Shown in pieces: positions 9,069-48,955 of a stretch of 64,000 nucleotides of DNA (within the stretch, counting starts at the first letter, position 1; each line of letters begins with the position of its first letter). Location: contig NZ_CP139957.1 in assembly GCF_034343125.1 (NCBI RefSeq), positions 1,325,001 through 1,389,000 on the forward strand, in the 5' to 3' direction. The notes under the pieces are model-generated. The model worked only from the letters and a program-made list of their open reading frames with translations. It searched no databases and was not told the DNA's origin. Position numbers and translations under genes: made by a program. The DNA is from Caldicellulosiruptor danielii. Lineage in GTDB: Bacteria; Bacillota; Thermoanaerobacteria; Caldicellulosiruptorales; Caldicellulosiruptoraceae.

Positions 9069-9698
9069 TTGAAAAGAATTTATTTGGTAAGACATGGTGA
9101 GACCAACTGGAATAAGCTCAATCTTGTTCAGGGTTCAATCGATACAGAACTCAATTCATCTGGTATTGAACAAGCAAAAAAGATTGCTGAAAGGCTTAAA
9201 AATAAAAAGATTGATATAATATTTTCAAGTACATTAAAAAGGGCTTATACTACAGCAAGTTATATAAAATTTTATCATCCCCAGACTTTATTTGAAACTT
9301 CTGAAAAACTCAATGAGATAAATTTTGGCGAGTGGGAAGGTTTGAGCTTTGAGGAGCTTGAAAAGAAATACTCTCAGACGTACTTGATGTGGAAAGACAA
9401 TCCCGATAAGGCCATATTCCCAGGTGAAGGCAATCTCCACGTTGTTATGAAAAGAGTTAAAAGTTTTTATGATGAGGTTTTGCAGAGAGATTATGGTAAT
9501 ATTGTAGTTGTTACTCACGGTGGGATAGTAAAACTTTCAATCATATATCTTTTGAACCTTCCGCTTGATTTTTACAAAAAGTGCTGGATTGGGAATGCAA
9601 GTTTGAGTATTGTTGATATAAAAGGAGAAAGGACAATGCTCAGTCTTTTGAATGATATGTCTCATTTAACATCAGAAGAAGTTCGCCCAATAATTTAA
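9069..9698 (+). CDS. Histidine phosphatase family protein (phosphoglycerate mutase/CobC-like)
   Basis: Uses a phosphohistidine intermediate to dephosphorylate small molecules or exchange phosphate. The catalytic RHGETNWN motif is at residues 8-15, and the second histidine is in VVTHGGIVKL (about 154-163). The TTG start at 9069 is supported by AGGTGATG just before it and gives the usual MKRIYLVRHGE beginning. With 209 residues it is shorter than the dPGM type, so a broad-specificity phosphatase is more likely than glycolytic mutase. It lies between an RpiR regulator and a HutP-like gene. A second member of this family begins at 63571. Confidence 0.85.
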   Translation: MKRIYLVRHGETNWNKLNLVQGSIDTELNSSGIEQAKKIAERLKNKKIDIIFSSTLKRAYTTASYIKFYHPQTLFETSEKLNEINFGEWEGLSFEELEKKYSQTYLMWKDNPDKAIFPGEGNLHVVMKRVKSFYDEVLQRDYGNIVVVTHGGIVKLSIIYLLNLPLDFYKKCWIGNASLSIVDIKGERTMLSLLNDMSHLTSEEVRPII

Positions 9699-9719
9699 AT
9701 GAAAAGTGGGGTAAATAAA

Positions 9720-10142
9720 ATGGTGGAGAAAAAGGAGTTTGGGAGTAAGGATGTCTCAAGAGCAGCTATTTTGATAGCCTTGAGCCAGAACAGACAAGAA
9801 GAAAAAAAGATTCAAGAAGATTTTTTTAAAATAGGAATCAGATGTGCAGCAGTAGATTTTGGTGGAGAGTTTATAACCTCTGTTATGAAAATTGTTGAAA
9901 GAGCAGTTGTTGCTGCCAAAAGAGAAGGTGTTATAAACGAGGTGCATCAAGAGGAAGGTGCTGTTGCAGGAGCAACAAGAGAAGCAATATCTCAAATTAT
10001 GCAAAAAGCGGTTGGTCTTAATGTAGGTGGGAAGATTGGCATTGCAAGATTTGAGGAGCATGTTGCAGTTGCCATATTTTTTGGGATAGGTCTTTTACAT
10101 TTAAATGAGGTGGCAATCGGACTTGGTCACAGGGTTATATGA
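9720..10142 (+). CDS. HutP family protein, divergent
   Basis: HutP proteins are RNA-binding antiterminators that respond to histidine and Mg2+ in Bacillus. This 140-residue protein shows the same layout: an AAILIAL helix, VDFGGEFITSVMKIVERAVVAAKREGVI, a QEEGAVAGATREAI helix and an end in VAIGLGHRVI like the HutP GLGINHI end. In the third segment the two metal-ligand histidines of HutP (in SHALYHAT) are replaced by glycines. ATG 9720 is used because GTGGGG lies 8 nt before it; ATG 9699 lacks a site. No hut genes are nearby; it sits between the phosphatase and aroH. Membership is moderately sure, activity is not. Confidence 0.6.
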   Translation: MVEKKEFGSKDVSRAAILIALSQNRQEEKKIQEDFFKIGIRCAAVDFGGEFITSVMKIVERAVVAAKREGVINEVHQEEGAVAGATREAISQIMQKAVGLNVGGKIGIARFEEHVAVAIFFGIGLLHLNEVAIGLGHRVI

Positions 10143-35082: not shown

Positions 35083-36177
35083 ATGGGTAGGATGGAAGAT
35101 AGGATTTATTTAAATTTAAAAAGGGAAGAAAAGAATATTCCAATTGTCTTTATTGAGAGAATAGAAGAAATTAGAGAACATCTTGCATCTTTTAACTACA
35201 CAGATCTTGTTATATTTTCAGACAAGTTGGTCTACAGACTCTACAAAGATTTTATTGAGAGCCTTAAGCCTACTTACCTTTACCTTTTTGATGAAGGTGA
35301 AGAATCAAAGTCAATAGAGTCTTATCTAAAAGCCATTGATTATCTTTTAGAGAAAAATATAGACAGGAAAGCATTGTTTGTTGCAATTGGTGGTGGTGTT
35401 GTTGGTGATGTAGTTGGATTTGTTGCCTCTACATACAAGCGTGGTGTAAGGCTCATACACATTCCAACAACTCTTCTTTCAATGGTTGACAGTAGTATTG
35501 GTGGAAAAACAGGAATTAATTATAAATCCTATAAGAACCAAATCGGGACGTTTTACCAGCCTGAAATGATAATAATTTGTCCTAAGTTTTTAGAAACATT
35601 ACCGAAAAGCGAGATTTTATCTGGTTTAGGCGAGATAATAAAATATGGATTTACCTTAGACAGAAGTATATTGGGTATGAAAGAAAGATTTGAAAAAGAT
35701 GTTTTTGACATATTTCACGATAGAATGCTTGCTATGCAATTGATAAAGAAATCTATTAACTGTAAAGTCAAAATTGTTGAAAAGGACGAAAAGGAATCAC
35801 TCTTGCGAGAGGTTTTGAATTTTGGCCACACAGTAGGTCATGCATTAGAGACCTATTACAATTACTACTTTTCTCATGGCATATTTATTATTTTGGGAAT
35901 GATTGCTGAGATGATACTTTCAAATATGATATTTAATTTTGATTTGTCAAACGTAGATTTTTTAATAAGAATTTTGGAGAAAAATAATATAAAACTTCCT
36001 CAAAAGTTTGATAAGAACCAGATTATCTCTATTATGAAACATGATAAGAAGAACATAAATGCTTCTATAAGGATGGTTTTATTAAAAGATGTGTGTGATT
36101 ATGTTTTAGGTTACGAAGTTAATGAAGATATTTTATATGAGGTACTTGGAAGGTTCGAAAAAATTGTTTTCTCTTAA
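35083..36177 (+). CDS. aroB: 3-Dehydroquinate synthase (AroB)
   Basis: Second step of the shikimate pathway, converting DAHP to 3-dehydroquinate with NAD+ and a divalent metal. GGGVVGDVVGFVAS (about 104-117), YKRGVRLIHIPTTLL, DSSIGGKTGIN and the metal-ligand region NFGHTVGHALE are present. Length 364 is normal. ATG 35083 lies right after AAAAAGG, and ATG 35092 after GGGTAGG; the spacing is poor for both. It stands alone between two terminators, away from aroH. Confidence 0.93.
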   Translation: MGRMEDRIYLNLKREEKNIPIVFIERIEEIREHLASFNYTDLVIFSDKLVYRLYKDFIESLKPTYLYLFDEGEESKSIESYLKAIDYLLEKNIDRKALFVAIGGGVVGDVVGFVASTYKRGVRLIHIPTTLLSMVDSSIGGKTGINYKSYKNQIGTFYQPEMIIICPKFLETLPKSEILSGLGEIIKYGFTLDRSILGMKERFEKDVFDIFHDRMLAMQLIKKSINCKVKIVEKDEKESLLREVLNFGHTVGHALETYYNYYFSHGIFIILGMIAEMILSNMIFNFDLSNVDFLIRILEKNNIKLPQKFDKNQIISIMKHDKKNINASIRMVLLKDVCDYVLGYEVNEDILYEVLGRFEKIVFS

Positions 36178-36289: not shown

Positions 36290-36381
36290 ACTAATTTCTG
36301 CATTGTTACAGATTGTAAAGTATGAATCATATTTCTCTTATAACTTTGCATCAAAAGTTTTAAAAAATTTTTAAAAACCTC

Positions 36382-36432
36382 TTTTCAAATTGGTTTTACT
36401 GTTGTAATATATAAACATAATCATAATTGTAT
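36382..36432 (+). promoter_or_regulatory. Orphan BlaI-type promoter/operator (copy E)
   Basis: TTTTCA (36382-36387), 17 nt, TAATAT (36405-36410), with a dyad TTTTAC-TGTT-GTAATA over the -10 and a second, weaker dyad CATAATTGTA 25 bp further on. No + strand gene follows; it points into the 3' end of the - strand gene 36485-37612. The downstream text AGAGGGTGT...GCAAAT resembles the leader at 40733-40748, so this looks like a stranded promoter copy. Confidence 0.55.
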
Positions 36433-36484
36433 AAGATTGTATAAGAGGGTGTCTATGCAAATTTTTAGCACCCCCTGTAACTTA

Positions 36485-37612
36485 TTACTCAGTGAGCAAA
36501 CTTAATGAAATTTTTTCTGGAACCACTTTGTGACTAACAAGTGCTATATTTTTACCATTCCATATAGGCTCAAATTTATACATTTTTTTGTCTTTAATAC
36601 TGTATACCACAACATTATACTTTACTTTATTATTTTTAACTTCCTTTTCGCTGAAAATAAGATAGTTATTGTTTAAAAATTTAACTGAATCGTATTGTAC
36701 CACACTATTTGTAGTAGGTATCTTAAATGTTTCAAATGAACTTTTACTTCTATTAAGTTTCATAACTCTTATTAAATTTTTTTCAGGATATGATGCCTCT
36801 TTTATGGATTGTATATCTGTTATAAAAGCAAATATTCCATTTGGTGCTATATCAAAATGTTGTCTTGGCGGATATGGTAAATTATTAATAGCAGGATAAG
36901 AAGTTGTATTTACTACTTTTAAATTATTTTTATCAAACCAAACAATTTTGTATGGATAGGTAGGGAGATAAATGACTTTTTCACTGTTTTTATTATATTC
37001 TTTGAATTTAATTTCCTGAATCCAGGTGATAAAAATAAGTTGATTGTTAATTTCAGATGGTGCAAATTGAATCGTGTTAATTTGTGAATTCTTAGGAGCA
37101 GCAATAAGACTATTAATAACAATTTCTTTTATTATTTTTTCGGTTTTAGTATTCCATATTTGGATACCAGGCTTACCGTTAGGGTTATGAGGAACATTAT
37201 AAGTTAATAAAAGTTCATTATTCAGCCAATGTATAAAAAATTGCTCACTAAAATCTTTGGTAAGCCAATGTTCTTTTTTTGTTTTGAGATCAACAATTAA
37301 AATATTCTGTGAATCTCTTTCTTTGTTCCAGGTTGAAATTGCTATATATTTACCATTGGGTGAAATAGCTGCTTCAGGATTAGGTCCTCTTCCACCTTTC
37401 CAAACAAGATACAAAGTAGGTCTTCTACCTTGTAATAGTTCTTGTATATCCCAAGCAAATATTGCATTTTGATTTACTCCAAAAGAAGATTTTAACCACG
37501 TGGAAGAAAGTATTAAATTTTTATTTCTGTTTGTGCAATTGACATGAATGTTGATGTTTGTGATAAAAAAATATACTAATACAATTAAGCTTACTATTAG
37601 TTTATTCTTCAT
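36485..37612 (-). CDS. Exported beta-propeller-like protein, unknown function
   Basis: A 375-residue protein with an N-terminal signal or anchor (MKNKLIVSLIVLVYFFITNI) and no lipobox. The rest is beta-rich with WD40/TolB-like strands such as AAISPNGKYIAISTWN, ILIVDLKTKKEHWLT and FDIAPNGIFAFITDI, which suggest a six- or seven-bladed propeller outside the membrane. AGAGGG precedes its ATG on the - strand, 22 nt after the RlpA-like reading frame, so both share promoter F. Similar proteins are encoded at 38377 and 42532 in the same island. No catalytic motif is seen. Confidence 0.65.
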   Translation of the reverse strand: MKNKLIVSLIVLVYFFITNINIHVNCTNRNKNLILSSTWLKSSFGVNQNAIFAWDIQELLQGRRPTLYLVWKGGRGPNPEAAISPNGKYIAISTWNKERDSQNILIVDLKTKKEHWLTKDFSEQFFIHWLNNELLLTYNVPHNPNGKPGIQIWNTKTEKIIKEIVINSLIAAPKNSQINTIQFAPSEINNQLIFITWIQEIKFKEYNKNSEKVIYLPTYPYKIVWFDKNNLKVVNTTSYPAINNLPYPPRQHFDIAPNGIFAFITDIQSIKEASYPEKNLIRVMKLNRSKSSFETFKIPTTNSVVQYDSVKFLNNNYLIFSEKEVKNNKVKYNVVVYSIKDKKMYKFEPIWNGKNIALVSHKVVPEKISLSLLTE

Positions 37613-37634
37613 TATTATCCCTCTGATTATTTAT

Positions 37635-38024
37635 TTAGTTAAAAAATTGCTTAACCTGAAGCCATGTCCGTCCATAAATCAAATTACTTTCTTGTCCACT
37701 TAACTCTTTCATGTAATTGTAGGATATATCCATTATACGATATACTAAATCTGTATTGGGTATTTGATTTGGTCCGAAATCATTTCTATATAACACTAAC
37801 TTTTTATTGTTTTGTAAATTGCGTACTTCCACTTTAGTATTATAAGGCACATCTTCCCAGCGATATGGTAATGCTACATTTTTGCTTGATGTTCCTTGAT
37901 AACTTGAAATCTCACCGTAAGTTAATAAATAATTGTCGTCATATTTTGTCCCTATTGCGTCACAAATCAACTCCTTTCTTAGATTAAGAAATTTGAAAAA
38001 TTATAATTGTCTACTCTTAAACAT
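37635..38024 (-). pseudogene. RlpA-like (double-psi beta-barrel) gene with a broken 5' end
   Basis: From 37970 down to 37635 an open frame of 111 residues contains VPYNTKVEVRNLQNNKKL, YRNDFGPNQIPN and YRIMDISYNYMKEL. This is the NDxGP and R-I-x-D-x-S pattern of RlpA/DPBB proteins, which act on peptidoglycan. The best start, ATG 38024-38022 behind GAGGTGA, is in frame but meets TAA after seven codons (MFKSRQL). The only later start, TTG 37970, touches its AAAGGAG site with no spacing. No signal peptide is found in either part. The gene is probably decayed, or the seven-codon ORF is a leader peptide. Confidence 0.55.
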
Positions 38025-38062
38025 TTTCGACTCACCTCTTGAATAGTTTTTTATTGATTATT

Positions 38063-38096
38063 ATTATACTACGCATGTAGTAACACTACAACTGTA
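38063..38096 (-). promoter_or_regulatory. BlaI-type promoter/operator (copy F) for the - strand pair
   Basis: On the - strand: TTGTAG (38091-38086), 17 nt, TATAAT (38068-38063). The inverted repeat TACTAC-GCAT-GTAGTA (38067-38082) covers the spacer and the edge of the -10. TACAACTGTA (38087-38096), an exact TACA-N2-TGTA dyad, covers the -35. Dyad centres are 17 bp apart, the same as in copy G. Confidence 0.7.
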
Positions 38097-38251
38097 AGAT
38101 TAGACAAAAAATAAGCACATTCTCTCAATTTTTTGGTAAAATATCATACTATAAGTTCTAATAACTAATTTTCGGCATAGATGAATAGAAAGACATCTTT
38201 AGGCTTGAATCTTTTTATATAAAAATCTCCAAAAAACTTTTTAAAAACATC

Positions 38252-38304
38252 TTTACAAACTAATTTTTACTATTGTAAAATATATTATGTAATTACATTG
38301 GTAA
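38252..38304 (+). promoter_or_regulatory. BlaI-type promoter/operator (copy B)
   Basis: TTTACA (38252-38257), 18 nt, TAAAAT (38276-38281). Dyad 1 TTTTAC-TATT-GTAAAA (38265-38280) is identical to that of the blaI promoter; dyad 2 TTAC-ATTG-GTAA (38293-38304) is imperfect. Drives the gene at 38377. Confidence 0.7.
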
Positions 38305-38322
38305 AAAGAGAATAATGTAGAA

Positions 38323-38370
38323 ATGAAAAAAGGATTTATTAAAGCCAACAGAAACAAAATTAGAGGAAAA
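38323..38370 (+). repeat. Remnant of the first codons of blaI carried with promoter B
   Basis: This stretch matches 43964-44010, the start of blaI, with one extra A near the start. Read one base on, it gives KDLLKPTETKLEEK against KDLLKPSEAELEVMK in BlaI. It is therefore copied blaI coding sequence, now serving as 5' leader of the next gene. Confidence 0.7.
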
Positions 38371-38376
38371 GGAAAA

Positions 38377-39597
38377 ATGTGTAATTTATTAAAAACGACA
38401 AAAAAGATATTTATCATTACTTGTGTTTTTGTTATGTCTTCTTTTCTTAGTCAATTGTTATTGCAAATAGTCTATACTAAAGACTTTTTTGAATATTTAC
38501 CCAAAAACGAAGTAAACTTTAATAGTATCCTTTTGAAAACATTTAAAAAGAATAAAGATGAAAATTTGATTATTGCCATTGACTCAAATAGATTTATTGG
38601 ACTTTCTAACAACGAAGATGCATATTTTATTAAAGACTTCAAGAAAAACTATAAAAAGTTGATATACAAAATTACTGAAAAAAACTTTCTGAGCATTGCT
38701 GAAAATTTTGATGGAAGATATTTTTATTGGATAGAAGGAGAAAGAAGAAAAGGGTATTTATATCAAAGTTGTAATTGGAAGTTATATGCATATGATATTA
38801 ATACAAATACTATCTACTTGATTGATAAATGTAATGAAACGAGTATTTCGGCCAATGACGATATGAAAGCCAAGGCAAGTGTTATGTGGAAAGATATATT
38901 TGCCTACAATGGCAAAGTTGTTTACTTAAACTATGAAAAGGATAAGAAAGGAATTATCTATTTAGTTGTAAAGTTATTTGATATGAAAACAAAAAAATAT
39001 TCCATTATCGAAAAAATACCTGAGAAAGAAAATAGGCTAATATATCCTCCATCTATTTATGGTGATAATATAGTTTGGTGTATATCCAATATTACCGAAA
39101 CTCATACAATGAGGACAGAAAGTGGAGAAATATATTTATATAATATCAAGAAAAAGTTAAAAACGAAAATCTCTCCTAATAACGAACTTGTAATGCCAAG
39201 AATTTATAAAAATTATATTATTGCTCTTCGCCATATAAATGGCATAAGTTCTCAAGATCAAATAGTTTTATGTGATATATCAAAAACACCAATTAGATGG
39301 AAAATAATAGTTTACCCTGAGTTGTATTCGGTGAAAAATTCAAATATGATTATGTTTGCAGATCCATATATTTCAGGAGGATATTTGTCTTGGTACGGTA
39401 ATTACTTGAAAGATAGTATTTATATATTTTCATTAAATGATTTAAAATATTACAAGATTCCATATTTAAAACCGCAAAAAGGATATTCAAATTATATCAT
39501 GCTTTACTCTGAAAATCCTTCTACCAATTTATTTATCAGAAGTTATTTTAAAGACAATACTAACGAAAAATATAGTGAGTATTTAATTTTGAAGTGA
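38377..39597 (+). CDS. Membrane-anchored beta-propeller-like protein, unknown function
   Basis: From ATG 38377 (AGAGGAAAAGGA just upstream) the product has 406 residues. A basic start (MCNLLKTTKKIF) is followed by one hydrophobic segment (about 11-33), then an extracellular beta-rich part with repeated YLY/YAYDI and IYLYNIKKKLKTKISPNN strands, as in TolB/DPP-like propellers. ATG 38323 would add 18 residues that are really a shifted blaI remnant, so it is rejected. It is under promoter B and ends at a strong terminator. No enzymatic motif is recognised. Confidence 0.65.
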   Translation: MCNLLKTTKKIFIITCVFVMSSFLSQLLLQIVYTKDFFEYLPKNEVNFNSILLKTFKKNKDENLIIAIDSNRFIGLSNNEDAYFIKDFKKNYKKLIYKITEKNFLSIAENFDGRYFYWIEGERRKGYLYQSCNWKLYAYDINTNTIYLIDKCNETSISANDDMKAKASVMWKDIFAYNGKVVYLNYEKDKKGIIYLVVKLFDMKTKKYSIIEKIPEKENRLIYPPSIYGDNIVWCISNITETHTMRTESGEIYLYNIKKKLKTKISPNNELVMPRIYKNYIIALRHINGISSQDQIVLCDISKTPIRWKIIVYPELYSVKNSNMIMFADPYISGGYLSWYGNYLKDSIYIFSLNDLKYYKIPYLKPQKGYSNYIMLYSENPSTNLFIRSYFKDNTNEKYSEYLILK

Positions 39598-43765: not shown

Positions 43766-43894
43766 TCCCTTGTTTTTCATAGGTATCAGCATTTCTTCTG
43801 AGAATTGATTTTATCGTGTTTTAGCTTATTTTGACCCAATATTTTCTGAACAAATAAAGCAAAAACGACTTTGAGAAAGTATTTCAAAATTCTC

Positions 43895-43945
43895 TTTACA
43901 AAGCATTTTTACTATTGTAAAATATATGTATAATTACAATTGTAA
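43895..43945 (+). promoter_or_regulatory. Autoregulated BlaI-type promoter/operator (copy A) of blaI-blaR1
   Basis: TTTACA (43895-43900), 17 nt, TAAAAT (43918-43923). Dyad 1 TTTTAC-TATT-GTAAAA (43907-43922) covers the -10. Dyad 2 TTACAATTGTAA (43934-43945), a perfect 12-bp palindrome with TACA-N2-TGTA core, lies over the expected transcription start. Centres are 25 bp apart, the layout also seen in copies C, D and E. Confidence 0.8.
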
Positions 43946-43963
43946 AAGGAGAGTGGTATAAAA

Positions 43964-44344
43964 ATGAACAAGGATTTATTGAAGCCATCAGAAGCAGAGT
44001 TGGAGGTTATGAAGGTTTTGTGGGAAGAAGGAAATCCCCTGAGTGCACCGGAGATAGTACAAAGATTAAAAGAGAAAAACATCAAATGGGAAAAATCAAC
44101 CATATACACCTTGATTGATAGACTTGCAAAGAAAAAGGCAATAAAGCAAGAGAAAAAAGATAAGCTTTACTACTACAGCCCATCAATTAGCAAAGAAGAA
44201 TATGCAAAAATAGAAACTGCAAGGATATTGAATAAGCTATTCAATGGTTCTGTAAAAAGTTTAATAGCAGCCTTAATTGAATGTGGGAACATAAAAAGAG
44301 AAGAGCTTGAGGAGATTAAAAAGTTATTAGAAAAAGAGGAGTAG
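43964..44344 (+). CDS. blaI: BlaI/MecI/CopY-type repressor
   Basis: A winged-helix repressor of 126 residues that binds dyad operators as a dimer and is inactivated by proteolysis when its partner sensor fires. The DNA-binding domain (about 1-75) contains PSEAELEVMKVLWEEGNPLS, NIKWEKSTIYTLIDRLAKK and YYYSP; the C-terminal helices with LFNGSVKSLIAAL form the dimer and cleavage region. It is followed 7 nt later by the BlaR1-like sensor. Its own promoter carries two operators, and the same dyads precede five or six other genes of the island, so it is likely the local master repressor. Antibiotic-related naming should not be taken literally. Confidence 0.92.
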   Translation: MNKDLLKPSEAELEVMKVLWEEGNPLSAPEIVQRLKEKNIKWEKSTIYTLIDRLAKKKAIKQEKKDKLYYYSPSISKEEYAKIETARILNKLFNGSVKSLIAALIECGNIKREELEEIKKLLEKEE

Positions 44345-44351
44345 AGATGAG

Positions 44352-45908
44352 ATGAATATAGAAGTTTTATTCAAGTGGGTTTTGGCAATGACAATAAGTG
44401 GTAGCGTAGCTGTTTTGGTATTTGCTATTTTAAGTAAAATCTTCAAAGAGCATTTAAGTGCAAGGGTAAGGTATTATATTTGGCTGATAGTGCTTTTTTG
44501 TTTTATGATTCCATGGGAAGTGTTATTTAACAGAAAATCATCACTTAGAGTACTAAATCAGAGTGTTATATTAGATAGCAGAAGTTATACAGTTTCAAAC
44601 TTCAGTCAAAGCAGTGTATTGAACTTGCAACCAAGAGGAAATTCATTACAAGGTGGGGCTTTAACAGCCCTGCCTTCTGAAAATGTTGGCTATTTTAATC
44701 CTGAGGTTTTACATGAAGTTATAGTTTATGTCTGGCTCATAGGTGCTGTTGTGTTTTTTGTATGGTTTTTGATAAGGTATATTTGGTTTAAGGTGATAGT
44801 AACAAGAAACTCAAGAGAATGTTCTGATGAATATTGCAAGAGGATAATTGAGAGATATTGTAGGTTAAAAAGAATTTCAAGGAAGATAAAGGTATTAGAA
44901 AGTGACATTATACCAACACCCATGCTTATAGGAACAATTAAGCCCATCTTGTTAATACCTGCAAAGAACATAGCAAGGGAAGACTTAAGACTGATCATAA
45001 GACATGAGCTTGTTCACTTCAGGAGAAAAGATGTATTAGTTAAGTGGTTTAGCAAACTGATAAATGCACTTCATTGGTTTAACCCCCTGTTATACTTTGC
45101 AGTTTTAAAGCTAAATAGAGAGTGTGAATATTCATGTGACGAAGAGGTGATAAGAAAGCTCAAGGAAGATGGCAAAAGAAGGTATGCGGAGGTACTTTAT
45201 AATACACTTTTGGTGAGTATAGGCAGTGGAGCAGGTGCGGCATTTGGTCTGGTAGGTAGAAAAGAAAGCATTGTTGAGAGATTTAGGTTTATTATGAGTT
45301 TGGAAGTAAAGAAAATGAGCAAAGGTGCTAAGGTATTTCTTGTGGTGGTAGTATCAACAACAATATTTTTAAGTGCATTTGTCCAAATTTGGGCAAAGGA
45401 TATTTTGAGTTTTGATAGAAGTGAGACAGAGGCAATCAAATCAACTATAGAAGGATTTTATGAAACGCAGTACAAAGCTTATCTTCAAATGGAGTATATA
45501 GATATAACACCGTACTTGGATATGTCAAAGATACAGAATCATAATAAGGTAATAGCTCTCAAAGAATTGGTATTCAGAAGAAAATATACAGACGAAAAAA
45601 AATATTGTTATGTTGAGAAGAGACATTTTCCATATGAACTTCATTATAAGAACATAGAGCTTGATGGCAATAAAGCCAAAGTAATTATTGACTTAGAGAT
45701 AAAACTGAAAGAAGCATATCCGTCATTTATTTCATATGGAGAAAATATTTTTGAATTAGAAAAGCTGGATGGAAAATGGAAAATAACAAAGCATATCTAT
45801 GACAAATGGGCCTTAATGCATTATGAATTCTATACTGACCAAAAGTTACCAGAACCCGATTATGAGCAAATAAAAAAGCAAATAGATAGAGATTTTGGAA
45901 TTAAGTAA
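44352..45908 (+). CDS. BlaR1/MecR1-like M56 membrane metalloprotease with a novel sensor domain
   Basis: A 518-residue sensor-protease. N-terminal membrane helices (about 8-28, 36-54, 118-140) surround the M56 protease, with zinc motif RHELVHFRRKD (His218, Glu219, His222) and the downstream glutamate region NRECEYSCDEEV. A last helix (about 327-347) exports the C-terminal domain (about 358-518). In BlaR1 and MecR1 that domain is a penicillin-binding transpeptidase with SxxK and KTG motifs; none is present. Instead it closely matches the N-terminal domain of the amidase at 46035 and looks like an NTF2-type ligand-binding fold. The signal is therefore probably not a beta-lactam. GAGGAGTAGAG precedes ATG 44352. 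Confidence 0.88.
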   Translation: MNIEVLFKWVLAMTISGSVAVLVFAILSKIFKEHLSARVRYYIWLIVLFCFMIPWEVLFNRKSSLRVLNQSVILDSRSYTVSNFSQSSVLNLQPRGNSLQGGALTALPSENVGYFNPEVLHEVIVYVWLIGAVVFFVWFLIRYIWFKVIVTRNSRECSDEYCKRIIERYCRLKRISRKIKVLESDIIPTPMLIGTIKPILLIPAKNIAREDLRLIIRHELVHFRRKDVLVKWFSKLINALHWFNPLLYFAVLKLNRECEYSCDEEVIRKLKEDGKRRYAEVLYNTLLVSIGSGAGAAFGLVGRKESIVERFRFIMSLEVKKMSKGAKVFLVVVVSTTIFLSAFVQIWAKDILSFDRSETEAIKSTIEGFYETQYKAYLQMEYIDITPYLDMSKIQNHNKVIALKELVFRRKYTDEKKYCYVEKRHFPYELHYKNIELDGNKAKVIIDLEIKLKEAYPSFISYGENIFELEKLDGKWKITKHIYDKWALMHYEFYTDQKLPEPDYEQIKKQIDRDFGIK

Positions 45909-46034: not shown

Positions 46035-47183
46035 TTGATTTTATTATGCTTCATTCTAATAATGTCAAATTCCATTGCCTATGCAGACTTATATTTTTTA
46101 AAAAACTCTGAAGAAGATAACATAAAAAACATTATCGAATCTTTTTACAATACTCAGTACGATGCATATTTACAAATGGAATATAAGGATATAACACCTT
46201 ACCTTGATATGACTAAAATACAAAATCAAAACAAAGTAATAGCTCTGAAAAATTTAACAGCAAGAAGAAAGTATATTTATCAAAAAGGTTATTGTTACAT
46301 CGAAAAGAGACGATTTCCATTAGAGTTCAATTACAAAGCTATTGATATAAACGGTAATCAAGCAAGCGTCATATTAGAAATAAAATTAGATGGACAGAAT
46401 GCTTATCCACCTTTTATTTGTGGTGGCGAAAATATATTTAAGTTAATAAAAATGGAAAATAACTGGAAAATTACAGGACATGATTACGAAGATCTAAGTT
46501 TCTACGAAATTTCAAAAGAAAAATTAATAAGAGAATTTCAACTAAAAGAATTAGCTGAAATGATTGATAAAGAATTTTCTCCTGATTTGAAAAAAGAATA
46601 TAGAAACTTCAGTGATGTTGAATTGAAAAGCAATGTTGGAATTCTCAGTTTGCCAGCGGTAAATCATTATTATAGTACATCAAGGGCTGTTGAATATGCA
46701 AACAAATACGTATTTAACCGTAATACCAAGTTTTATGATGCAACCTCTGGAGGAGGAGATTGTACAAATTTTGCCTCTCAAGTTTTGTGGTATGGATTTG
46801 GAGCAAATGATACTATGAACGATATATTAAACAAAGTGATGATGGTTCCTGGTTCATACGAAGAAGGGTGGTATGCCGGTCCTGGTGGAGGCTCACGAAA
46901 TTGGGAGAATGTTGAAGCTTTCTGGAGTTATATGACAAGCTATAAATCTATTGACACACCTGGTCCACGCGCTGTTGTAGTAGACAGTATAAATTCATTA
47001 GATAATGGTGGAATAATGCAAATTGATTTTTCTAATGACGGAAAATTTGAGCATGCAGTAATTCTTGTAGATAAAACTACCTTGAAATTTGCTCAGCATA
47101 CACCAAATACCTATCGTTATTATCAAGAATACACAGGCGCAAAAAGATTTTTCAACCCATATTATTTTAGAGAAATAGAATAA
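46035..47183 (+). CDS. Exported amidase (Amidase_6 type) sharing the BlaR1-like sensor domain
   Basis: A 382-residue protein with a hydrophobic signal (ILLCFILIMSNSIAYA, about 2-17). An N-terminal domain (about 25-185) nearly identical to the sensor domain of the preceding protein is followed by a C-terminal domain with TSGGGDCTNFASQVLWYG (candidate nucleophile Cys243) and KFEHAVIL (His340), as in the Amidase_6 group of putative cell-wall amidases. The translation start is weak: TTG 46035 or ATT 46029, with only TTTAAAGAAA upstream. It lies 126 nt after blaR1 with no terminator between, so it is probably read from promoter A. Substrate unknown; peptidoglycan-like peptide is the likely target. 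Confidence 0.72.
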   Translation: MILLCFILIMSNSIAYADLYFLKNSEEDNIKNIIESFYNTQYDAYLQMEYKDITPYLDMTKIQNQNKVIALKNLTARRKYIYQKGYCYIEKRRFPLEFNYKAIDINGNQASVILEIKLDGQNAYPPFICGGENIFKLIKMENNWKITGHDYEDLSFYEISKEKLIREFQLKELAEMIDKEFSPDLKKEYRNFSDVELKSNVGILSLPAVNHYYSTSRAVEYANKYVFNRNTKFYDATSGGGDCTNFASQVLWYGFGANDTMNDILNKVMMVPGSYEEGWYAGPGGGSRNWENVEAFWSYMTSYKSIDTPGPRAVVVDSINSLDNGGIMQIDFSNDGKFEHAVILVDKTTLKFAQHTPNTYRYYQEYTGAKRFFNPYYFREIE

Positions 47184-47968: not shown

Positions 47969-48126
47969 CTCTTACTTTTTGATTAATTACCAAAGTATAA
48001 AGTATATTCAAGGATGCTTTTTAAAGTTTGTTTCATATTTAAAAAAATCAAACTAAAAGATTTATATATGAGGTTTTATATATACAGCTTTACAAATTAA
48101 ATGATCTGAAAATATTTTAAAACTTC

Positions 48127-48180
48127 TTTACAAGTCAATTTTACAAATGTATAATATAGGTGTAACTACAAATATAAAAT
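48127..48180 (+). promoter_or_regulatory. BlaI-type promoter/operator (copy D) before a gene remnant
   Basis: TTTACA (48127-48132), 17 nt, TATAAT (48150-48155). Dyad 1 TACAAATGTA (48142-48151) is exact; dyad 2 TACAAATATA (48167-48176) has decayed on one side; centres 25 bp apart. It is a sister of copy C and is followed by a remnant of the gene copy C controls. Confidence 0.65.
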
Positions 48181-48184
48181 AATA

Positions 48185-48838
48185 AATGATGTTTATGTTT
48201 TGGTACCATCTCAAGAAAATGTCTATGTCCTTAAAGTGGCTACTTGGCAGCCTGCTGATGAGTTTATGAAAGAATTAGAAGGTTTCTAACTTGGGTGAAA
48301 ACAATGACAACATTAGCTAAATAGCTTACTTTGCAACCAATTATAATACAGAATTATTTACTCTGTTGCATGGAGCAGGGATAGCAGATGTGTTGCTATC
48401 AGTACTTCAACTCCTGCTGATCCATCATATATTTGGGTTTCAGTTGCTGACGTGTTAACCGGGAATGTAACAGAGTTTACGAAAAATACAGGACTATGTA
48501 ATCCGCCTGTTTGCTCTTTTTCAGAAAATAAATTTATTTTCTCACAGGGAAGTCCTGGATATAAAGAATTTGGTGACTATTCAAATATTAAGGACCCTTT
48601 TAGAGCAAAATTGGTGCTATTAAGTATTAAAAATGGAAATTCAGAATATATCAACCGAATTCCAAAAAATATAAATGCCTACTGGCCTGTTATTGGTTTA
48701 GATGGAATATATTTTACTGATAGAGGTGGATACATTGCAAGTAAAGAAGAGTGTTCAATTTACAAGTTAAAAAACGAAAAGGTAGTTTATTTATTAAATA
48801 AAGGAAATTTAGTGAGTTATGATATTATCAAATATTAG
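48185..48838 (+). pseudogene. Collapsed duplicate of the NlpC/P60 - propeller operon
   Basis: Three pieces are joined. 48185-48280 matches 41707-41802 (inside the NlpC/P60 gene) at 92 of 96 positions by my count. 48329-48350 resembles 42033-42054. 48348-48838 matches 43241-43737, the end of the propeller gene. The first piece runs into a stop at 48287. An open frame from GTG 48452 to 48838 (128 residues) encodes only the last propeller blades, without membrane anchor or start signals. It is a deletion derivative of a duplicated operon and probably not functional, though its promoter (copy D) looks intact. Confidence 0.8.
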
Positions 48839-48955
48839 ATCAGGCAAGTAATTTTAAAAGCAAGTTTTTCAATTTTGTTATAAAGGTTATTCATCCAAAG
48901 TTGAGTTGTTTATATTTTTCTTTCAACAACAGGAATTAAAATAATAAAATACAAA

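What the first reader, a model, noticed from the sequence alone, without database searches (positions are those of the whole stretch)
38252..38379. Promoter capture: a gene preceded by a copy of the blaI promoter plus the first codons of blaI
38252-38370 aligns with 43895-44010. After the operators, the copy includes blaI coding sequence; one base off frame it still reads KDLLKPTETKLEEK against KDLLKPSEAELEVMK. The real gene then starts at ATG 38377 with its own ribosome site. This is direct evidence of how the regulon spread: a repressor promoter was duplicated with part of its gene and placed before a new gene.
Basis: seen in the sequence. Interest (0 to 1): 0.72.

Follow-up and report, generated by a model that had tools for sequence, protein, structure and literature searches.

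The report
Dead blaI remnant before a gene
The gene at 38377 sits directly behind the operator-promoter and first 14-15 codons of a decayed second copy of the blaI repressor gene, because a deletion removed the rest of that blaI copy and a peptidase gene; the case shows how a repressor-controlled operon shrinks, not how a promoter is copied onto a new gene.

Summary
Window 38234-38366 aligns with the blaI promoter and gene start (43876-44006), score 74; the stated interval scores 68, while 2000 shuffles reach at most 27. The blaI coding part alone scores 27 (shuffle mean 8, maximum 20). The match ends at GAGG, 38363-38366.

The reading [quoted passage not shown] is mostly wrong. In seven congeneric genomes the same promoter and blaI head stand 0.2-2.3 kb upstream of the homologous gene. 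In six, the head runs on into a blaI pseudogene keeping a later blaI segment (17-19 nt). A C39-type peptidase gene, whole or degraded, follows, then the 38377 homologue with its own ribosome site. The 211-bp flank left of the copy is 87-93% identical to DNA upstream of intact blaI (three genomes) or pseudo-blaI (two).

So the copy is the relic of a whole second blaI, joined by deletion, probably at a shared GAGG, to the downstream gene in this lineage and in G007. The gene was probably already in that operon. One extra A puts blaI's ATG (38323) in frame with the gene in both genomes, a possible 18-residue extension. Operon decay is ordinary; the intermediates are unusually complete.

The parts
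38019..38229 (.). left flank of the copy; in relatives it lies upstream of intact blaI (G001, G003, G005) or of pseudo-blaI (G009, G010)
   Evidence: 211-bp flank alone: 93% G010, 92% G005, 92% G003, 91% G009, 87% G001; not found before the window's own blaI
38252..38281 (+). promoter-like TTTACA-18-TAAAAT inherited from the second blaI copy
   Evidence: aligned with blaI promoter; same hexamers in G007 and in the pseudo-blaI heads
38267..38278 (+). operator 1, TTACTATTGTAA, identical to blaI operator 1 at 43909
   Evidence: also exact in G007
38293..38304 (+). operator 2, degraded: TTACATTGGTAA where blaI has TTACAATTGTAA (43934)
   Evidence: TTACATTTGTAG in G007
38323..38366 (+). remnant of the first 14-15 codons of the second blaI, shifted by one extra A; ends at GAGG
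38363..38366 (+). GAGG at the deletion junction, common to the blaI head and to the ribosome site of the downstream gene
   Evidence: junction sequences of nine genomes
38323..39597 (+). ORF that would start at blaI's old ATG, 424 aa; 18-residue extension possible
   Evidence: also open in G007
38377..39597 (+). downstream gene, 406 aa, hydrophobic N-terminus, no known family; under purifying selection
   Evidence: dN/dS 0.30 with G007 and 0.14-0.18 with five others
43876..44344 (+). intact blaI with its promoter and two operators, the only blaI of this kind in the genome
44352..45908 (+). BlaR-like M56 protease, presumed partner of BlaI
   Evidence: PF05569, 8.8e-57
36362..36436 (+). further promoter remnant just after aroB, where several relatives have the pseudo-blaI promoter; here followed by a minus-strand gene block

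Best explanation
38252-38366 is what is left of a second blaI gene. Shown by comparison: in seven relatives the same promoter and head stand upstream of the homologous gene; in six of them the head continues into a pseudo-blaI with an internal deletion; a C39-type peptidase gene, whole or in fragments, follows; the 38377 homologue comes last with its own ribosome site. Inferred: a duplication once gave two blaI genes; the second copy decayed while its promoter went on serving the downstream genes; in the lineage now seen in G000 and G007 one or more deletions ending at a shared GAGG removed the rest of pseudo-blaI and the peptidase gene, leaving the 38377 gene first behind the promoter. Inferred: the surviving BlaI represses this promoter mainly through the intact first operator, and the BlaR-like M56 protease relieves repression. 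One extra A opens a frame from blaI's old ATG into the gene, so an 18-residue extension may be made; this is undecided.
For: Head and gene start are 216-2335 bp apart in seven genomes and adjoin only in G000 and G007. In six genomes pseudo-blaI keeps a later blaI segment in the right order: 18-19 nt exact in four (E 3e-7 to 1e-6), 17 nt with one change in two (alignment). C39-type gene or fragments in all seven, none in G000 or G007. Left flank 87-93% identical to flanks of intact blaI or pseudo-blaI. GAGG on both sides of the junction. Peptidase to gene 49 bp in G005 with no terminator-like site. Operator pattern exact at four places in the genome, all in this cluster.
Against: No genome shows an intact blaI directly followed by the C39 gene and the 38377 homologue, so the duplication of the whole gene is inferred. 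The repeated promoters may have recombined, so flanks can have been reshuffled (G007 lacks most of the 211-bp flank). The 137-bp tree favours pseudo-blaI descent but does not reject a local copy (AU p 0.28). BlaI binding, regulation and co-transcription are untested.
Confidence: 0.85

Rival explanations
1. One reading: the blaI promoter with part of blaI was copied from the local blaI and placed before a new gene.
For: Promoter plus coding start are present and end abruptly; a local origin is not rejected by the short tree (AU p 0.28).
Against: Same head upstream of the same gene in seven relatives with a pseudo-blaI and a peptidase gene between; later blaI segment in the pseudogene; left flank not found before the local blaI but shared with blaI or pseudo-blaI of relatives; 77% to own blaI against 86% to pseudo-blaI of G009.
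Confidence: 0.06
2. The frame restoration matters: the gene is now translated from blaI's ATG (38323) with an 18-residue basic extension (MKKGFIKANRNKIRGKGK), blaI codons reused in another frame. This is an addition to the best explanation rather than an alternative to it.
For: The extension is open in both G000 and G007; in G007 the ribosome site before the upstream ATG is the stronger one (-10.0 against -5.3).
Against: In G000 it is the reverse (-2.9 against -6.5); the 18 codons differ at four nonsynonymous and two synonymous positions, too few to show selection; a 54-nt open frame is easily met by chance.
Confidence: 0.25
3. The retained promoter is a relic with little regulatory role; the 38377 gene is driven otherwise or constitutively.
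For: Operator 2 is degraded in G000 and G007, and no expression data are at hand.
Against: The promoter hexamers and operator 1 are kept in both lineages, the gene is under purifying selection, and no better promoter-like site stands before it.
Confidence: 0.15

Closest known systems
Promoter-capture deletions (PMC5526668)
   Same: A deletion removes DNA between an upstream promoter and a gene and leaves the gene next to that promoter.
   Different: There the gene gains a foreign promoter; here the gene was probably already in the operon of that promoter, and the deletion only removed the genes between.
Pseudogene decay after gene duplication
   Same: One blaI is intact; the other shows an internal deletion, a stop, and then loss.
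   Different: The promoter of the dead copy is kept and faces an intact gene.
Small autoregulated BlaI regulons (Clostridium thermocellum, PMC8457756)
   Same: blaI with a BlaR-type protease, paired operators, few targets, mostly the regulator's own neighbourhood.
   Different: Operator sequence here is TTACnnnTGTAA rather than the GTCTAT/GACTAT motifs reported there; binding not tested here.

Membership tests
blaI pseudogene (remnant of a whole duplicated blaI) | homology to blaI beyond the promoter | tested here: met
   38323-38366, score 27 against shuffle maximum 20
blaI pseudogene (remnant of a whole duplicated blaI) | orthologous copies keep later parts of blaI | tested here: met
   blaI nt 110-128 retained in six relatives
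blaI pseudogene (remnant of a whole duplicated blaI) | an intact blaI in the same flanking context elsewhere | tested here: met
   G001, G003, G005 share the left flank
promoter capture (gene gains a promoter it lacked) | gene was outside the promoter's operon before the event | tested here: inconclusive
   G005: same strand, 49 bp behind the peptidase gene, no terminator-like site; co-transcription not testable here
BlaI-controlled operon | BlaI-type operators at the promoter | tested here: met
   operator 1 exact, operator 2 degraded
BlaI-controlled operon | repressor binds and represses | not testable with these tools
   needs gel shift and expression data
BlaI family (Penicillinase_R) | PF03965 match of the 43964 protein | tested here: met
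   106 bits, cut-off 22.6
BlaR1 beta-lactam sensor (44352 protein) | M56 protease domain | tested here: met
   PF05569, 193 bits
BlaR1 beta-lactam sensor (44352 protein) | penicillin-binding sensor domain | tested here: not met
   no transpeptidase or penicillin-binding match in Pfam; NCBIfam blaR1_generic 140.7 bits against cut-off 400

The most novel reading that the evidence does not exclude
The blaI head has become a new N-terminus: one extra A lets the dead repressor's start codon and first codons, in another frame, code for an 18-residue basic extension of the downstream gene, kept in two lineages. In addition, GAGG at the blaI head may be a repeated deletion end because it resembles the ribosome sites downstream, so that operon shrinkage here tends to leave clean promoter-proximal genes.
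Probability: 0.15. Interest if true: 0.5.

Novelty: new member of a known kind. Interest (0 to 1): 0.32.

Why it matters
A sequence read alone suggested regulon growth by copying a promoter. The related genomes show another direction: an operon under a repressor-type promoter lost its first genes, and the remnant only looks like a copied promoter. The series intact blaI, pseudo-blaI with peptidase gene, pseudo-blaI with peptidase fragments, bare head, all in one genus, is a well-sampled example of how operon decay puts a downstream gene first behind a regulated promoter. It also warns that promoter-plus-codons copies should be checked in relatives before being called captures.

Tried and rejected
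Two scans of genome contigs for named relatives failed: the 38377 protein gave none, and aroB gave only distant bacteria, so the genus could not be named by tool; Caldicellulosiruptor is a guess from memory. A tree of the 137-bp heads favours pseudo-blaI descent but is too short to reject the rival by AU test; a first attempt failed on thread settings. Function of the 38377 protein: no match in Pfam, NCBIfam or PDB and no similarity to the 42532 protein. Structure prediction was not run: the relatives' proteins came from loci outside the tool's stated list, and a lone sequence gives a poor model. The first ileS comparison mixed strands and was redone; the comparison of the 18 codons had a wrong offset for G007 and was redone. 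Paper searches found no account of this cluster.

Full report
What was claimed. A gene at 38377 is preceded by a copy of the blaI promoter plus the first codons of blaI, taken as a promoter duplicated with part of its gene and placed before a new gene.

The observation. Local alignment finds window 38234-38366 against 43876-44006 with score 74. The stated interval (38252-38379 against 43895-44019) scores 68, while 2000 dinucleotide-preserving shuffles have mean 16.3 and maximum 27. The part inside blaI scores 27 (mean 8.2, maximum 20), and no other place in the window exceeds 18. The match ends at 38366 (GAGG). The frame slip is one extra A after the ATG.

Regulatory anatomy. The copy keeps TTTACA, 18 bases, TAAAAT. 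Operator 1 is TTACTATTGTAA, identical to that of blaI. Operator 2 is TTACATTGGTAA, where blaI has TTACAATTGTAA. TTACWNNTGTAA has seven exact hits in the window against 0.83 expected (two sites are counted on both strands). The longer operator/-10 pattern occurs exactly four times in the 2.82-Mb genome, all within this cluster (38267, 40663, 43909, 48141). The genome has one blaI of this kind. Its neighbour 44352-45908 is an M56 protease without a penicillin-binding domain match. TACANNTGTA is the site reported for the BlaI/MecI/CopY family (PMC7253601), and small autoregulated BlaI regulons are known in Clostridium thermocellum (PMC8457756). BlaI control of 38377 is inferred, not shown.

Related genomes. 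Eleven other genomes of the genus are held. The 38377 protein has a match in ten of them. It is unbroken beside the blaI cluster in G002, G004, G005, G007, G009 and G011, and broken by stops in G010, G006 and G003. G001 has a 68% homologue at another place without a blaI head. The DNA of the copy was then searched for. In G011, G010, G006, G002, G005, G004 and G009 the promoter and blaI head (window 38230-38366) match upstream of, and apart from, the gene-start block (window 38363-38400); 216, 356, 338, 1240, 1251, 1265 and 2335 bp lie between them. Only in G000 and G007 do they adjoin.

What lies between. In six of the seven (all but G011) the head runs on as MNKDLLKPSEAELEVRLKKDIKWE-stop or a degraded form of it: the first 15 codons of blaI joined to a segment from about codon 34. 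That later segment is an exact 18-19 nt match to blaI nt 110-128 in four genomes (E 3e-7 to 1e-6) and 17 nt with one change in two (E 0.001), in the right order. So the dead copy once held more of blaI than its start. A peptidase gene follows: 265 codons open in G005, Peptidase_C39_2 at 3e-7; broken in G002 and G004; fragments in G006, G009, G010 and G011; nothing in G000 or G007. The 38377 homologue follows the peptidase by 49 bp in G005 with its own ribosome site GAGGAGAAG. No terminator-like site was found across this stretch in G005, and promoter-like sites were at chance level. In G009 the longer gap holds an IS110-type transposase.

The junction. In relatives the head ends TTAGAGG and the gene's ribosome site begins GAGGAGAAG. 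G000 reads TTAGAGGAAAAGGAAAAATG, so GAGG is common to both sides. The simplest account is a deletion between two GAGG copies. G007 has the same spacing of 54 nt from head ATG to gene ATG, hence the same junction.

The left flank. The 211 bp left of the repeat (38019-38229) are 92% identical to the DNA upstream of intact blaI in G005 and G003, 87% in G001, and 91-93% to the DNA upstream of pseudo-blaI in G009 and G010; they are absent before the window's own blaI. The copy therefore stands where relatives have a blaI gene or its pseudogene. The copy is 86% identical to pseudo-blaI of G009 and 77% to the window's own blaI. The best tree groups it with pseudo-blaI heads (support 86), but with 137 bp a local origin is not rejected (AU p 0.28). 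The argument rests on gene order and the pseudogene, not on this tree.

Spread of the fused locus. In ileS, G007 is 81% identical to G000 and groups with G008. In aroB after its first 200 bases, in the 38377 gene and in blaI, G000 and G007 group together (support 1.0; 92-96%). The block has apparently been exchanged between lineages; the fusion is old enough for 6% divergence of the 38377 gene since. That gene is under purifying selection (dN/dS 0.30 between G000 and G007, 0.14-0.18 between G000 and five others), so it is in use.

The start codon. Ribosome-site pairing energies favour ATG 38377 in G000 (-6.5 against -2.9) and the upstream ATG in G007 (-10.0 against -5.3), with a background median of -2.3. 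The 18 extra codons differ between the two at four nonsynonymous and two synonymous positions. Whether the extension is made is open.

Verdict. The sequence similarity is confirmed. The mechanism proposed is mostly wrong: the copy is the relic of a whole duplicated blaI, trimmed by deletions that also removed a C39-type peptidase gene. The downstream gene was probably in the operon before the deletion, so its place behind a BlaI-type promoter is inherited rather than captured. This is ordinary operon decay, close to promoter-capture deletions (PMC5526668), with unusually complete intermediates.

Noticed in passing
48120-48840: Another deletion derivative in the same cluster: a BlaI-type promoter joined directly to codons 313-344 of a second copy of the NlpC/P60-type gene (40771), then to codons 237-399 of a second copy of the 42532 gene.
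   Followed up: partly
L076 (reverse strand), flipped coordinates 9555-10127: In G009 a BlaI-type promoter is joined to blaR from codon 379 onwards, a third kind of promoter-plus-remnant.
   Followed up: partly
36362-38018: A promoter remnant follows aroB and is joined to a minus-strand gene block (36485-37612 and neighbours); the same junction is seen in G003.
   Followed up: partly
35083-36177: Identity to G007 jumps from 78% in the first 200 bases of aroB to 92-96% after them, while ileS is 81%: a likely recombination breakpoint of a block exchanged between lineages.
   Followed up: partly
44352-45908 and 46035-47183: The BlaR-like protein has no penicillin-binding domain match; its C-terminal 165 residues are 52% identical to the N-terminal part of the amidase-like ORF beside it, perhaps a different sensor domain.
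   Followed up: no
L078 6219-6240: The distant 38377 homologue of G001 has a different dyad, GACTATACAAAAGTATAGTTG, upstream; GACTAT resembles a motif reported for a Clostridium thermocellum BlaI (PMC8457756).
   Followed up: no
L070 5446-5450 and L072-L076 heads: Left deletion ends in different genomes fall at or next to the same GAGG of the blaI head.
   Followed up: partly
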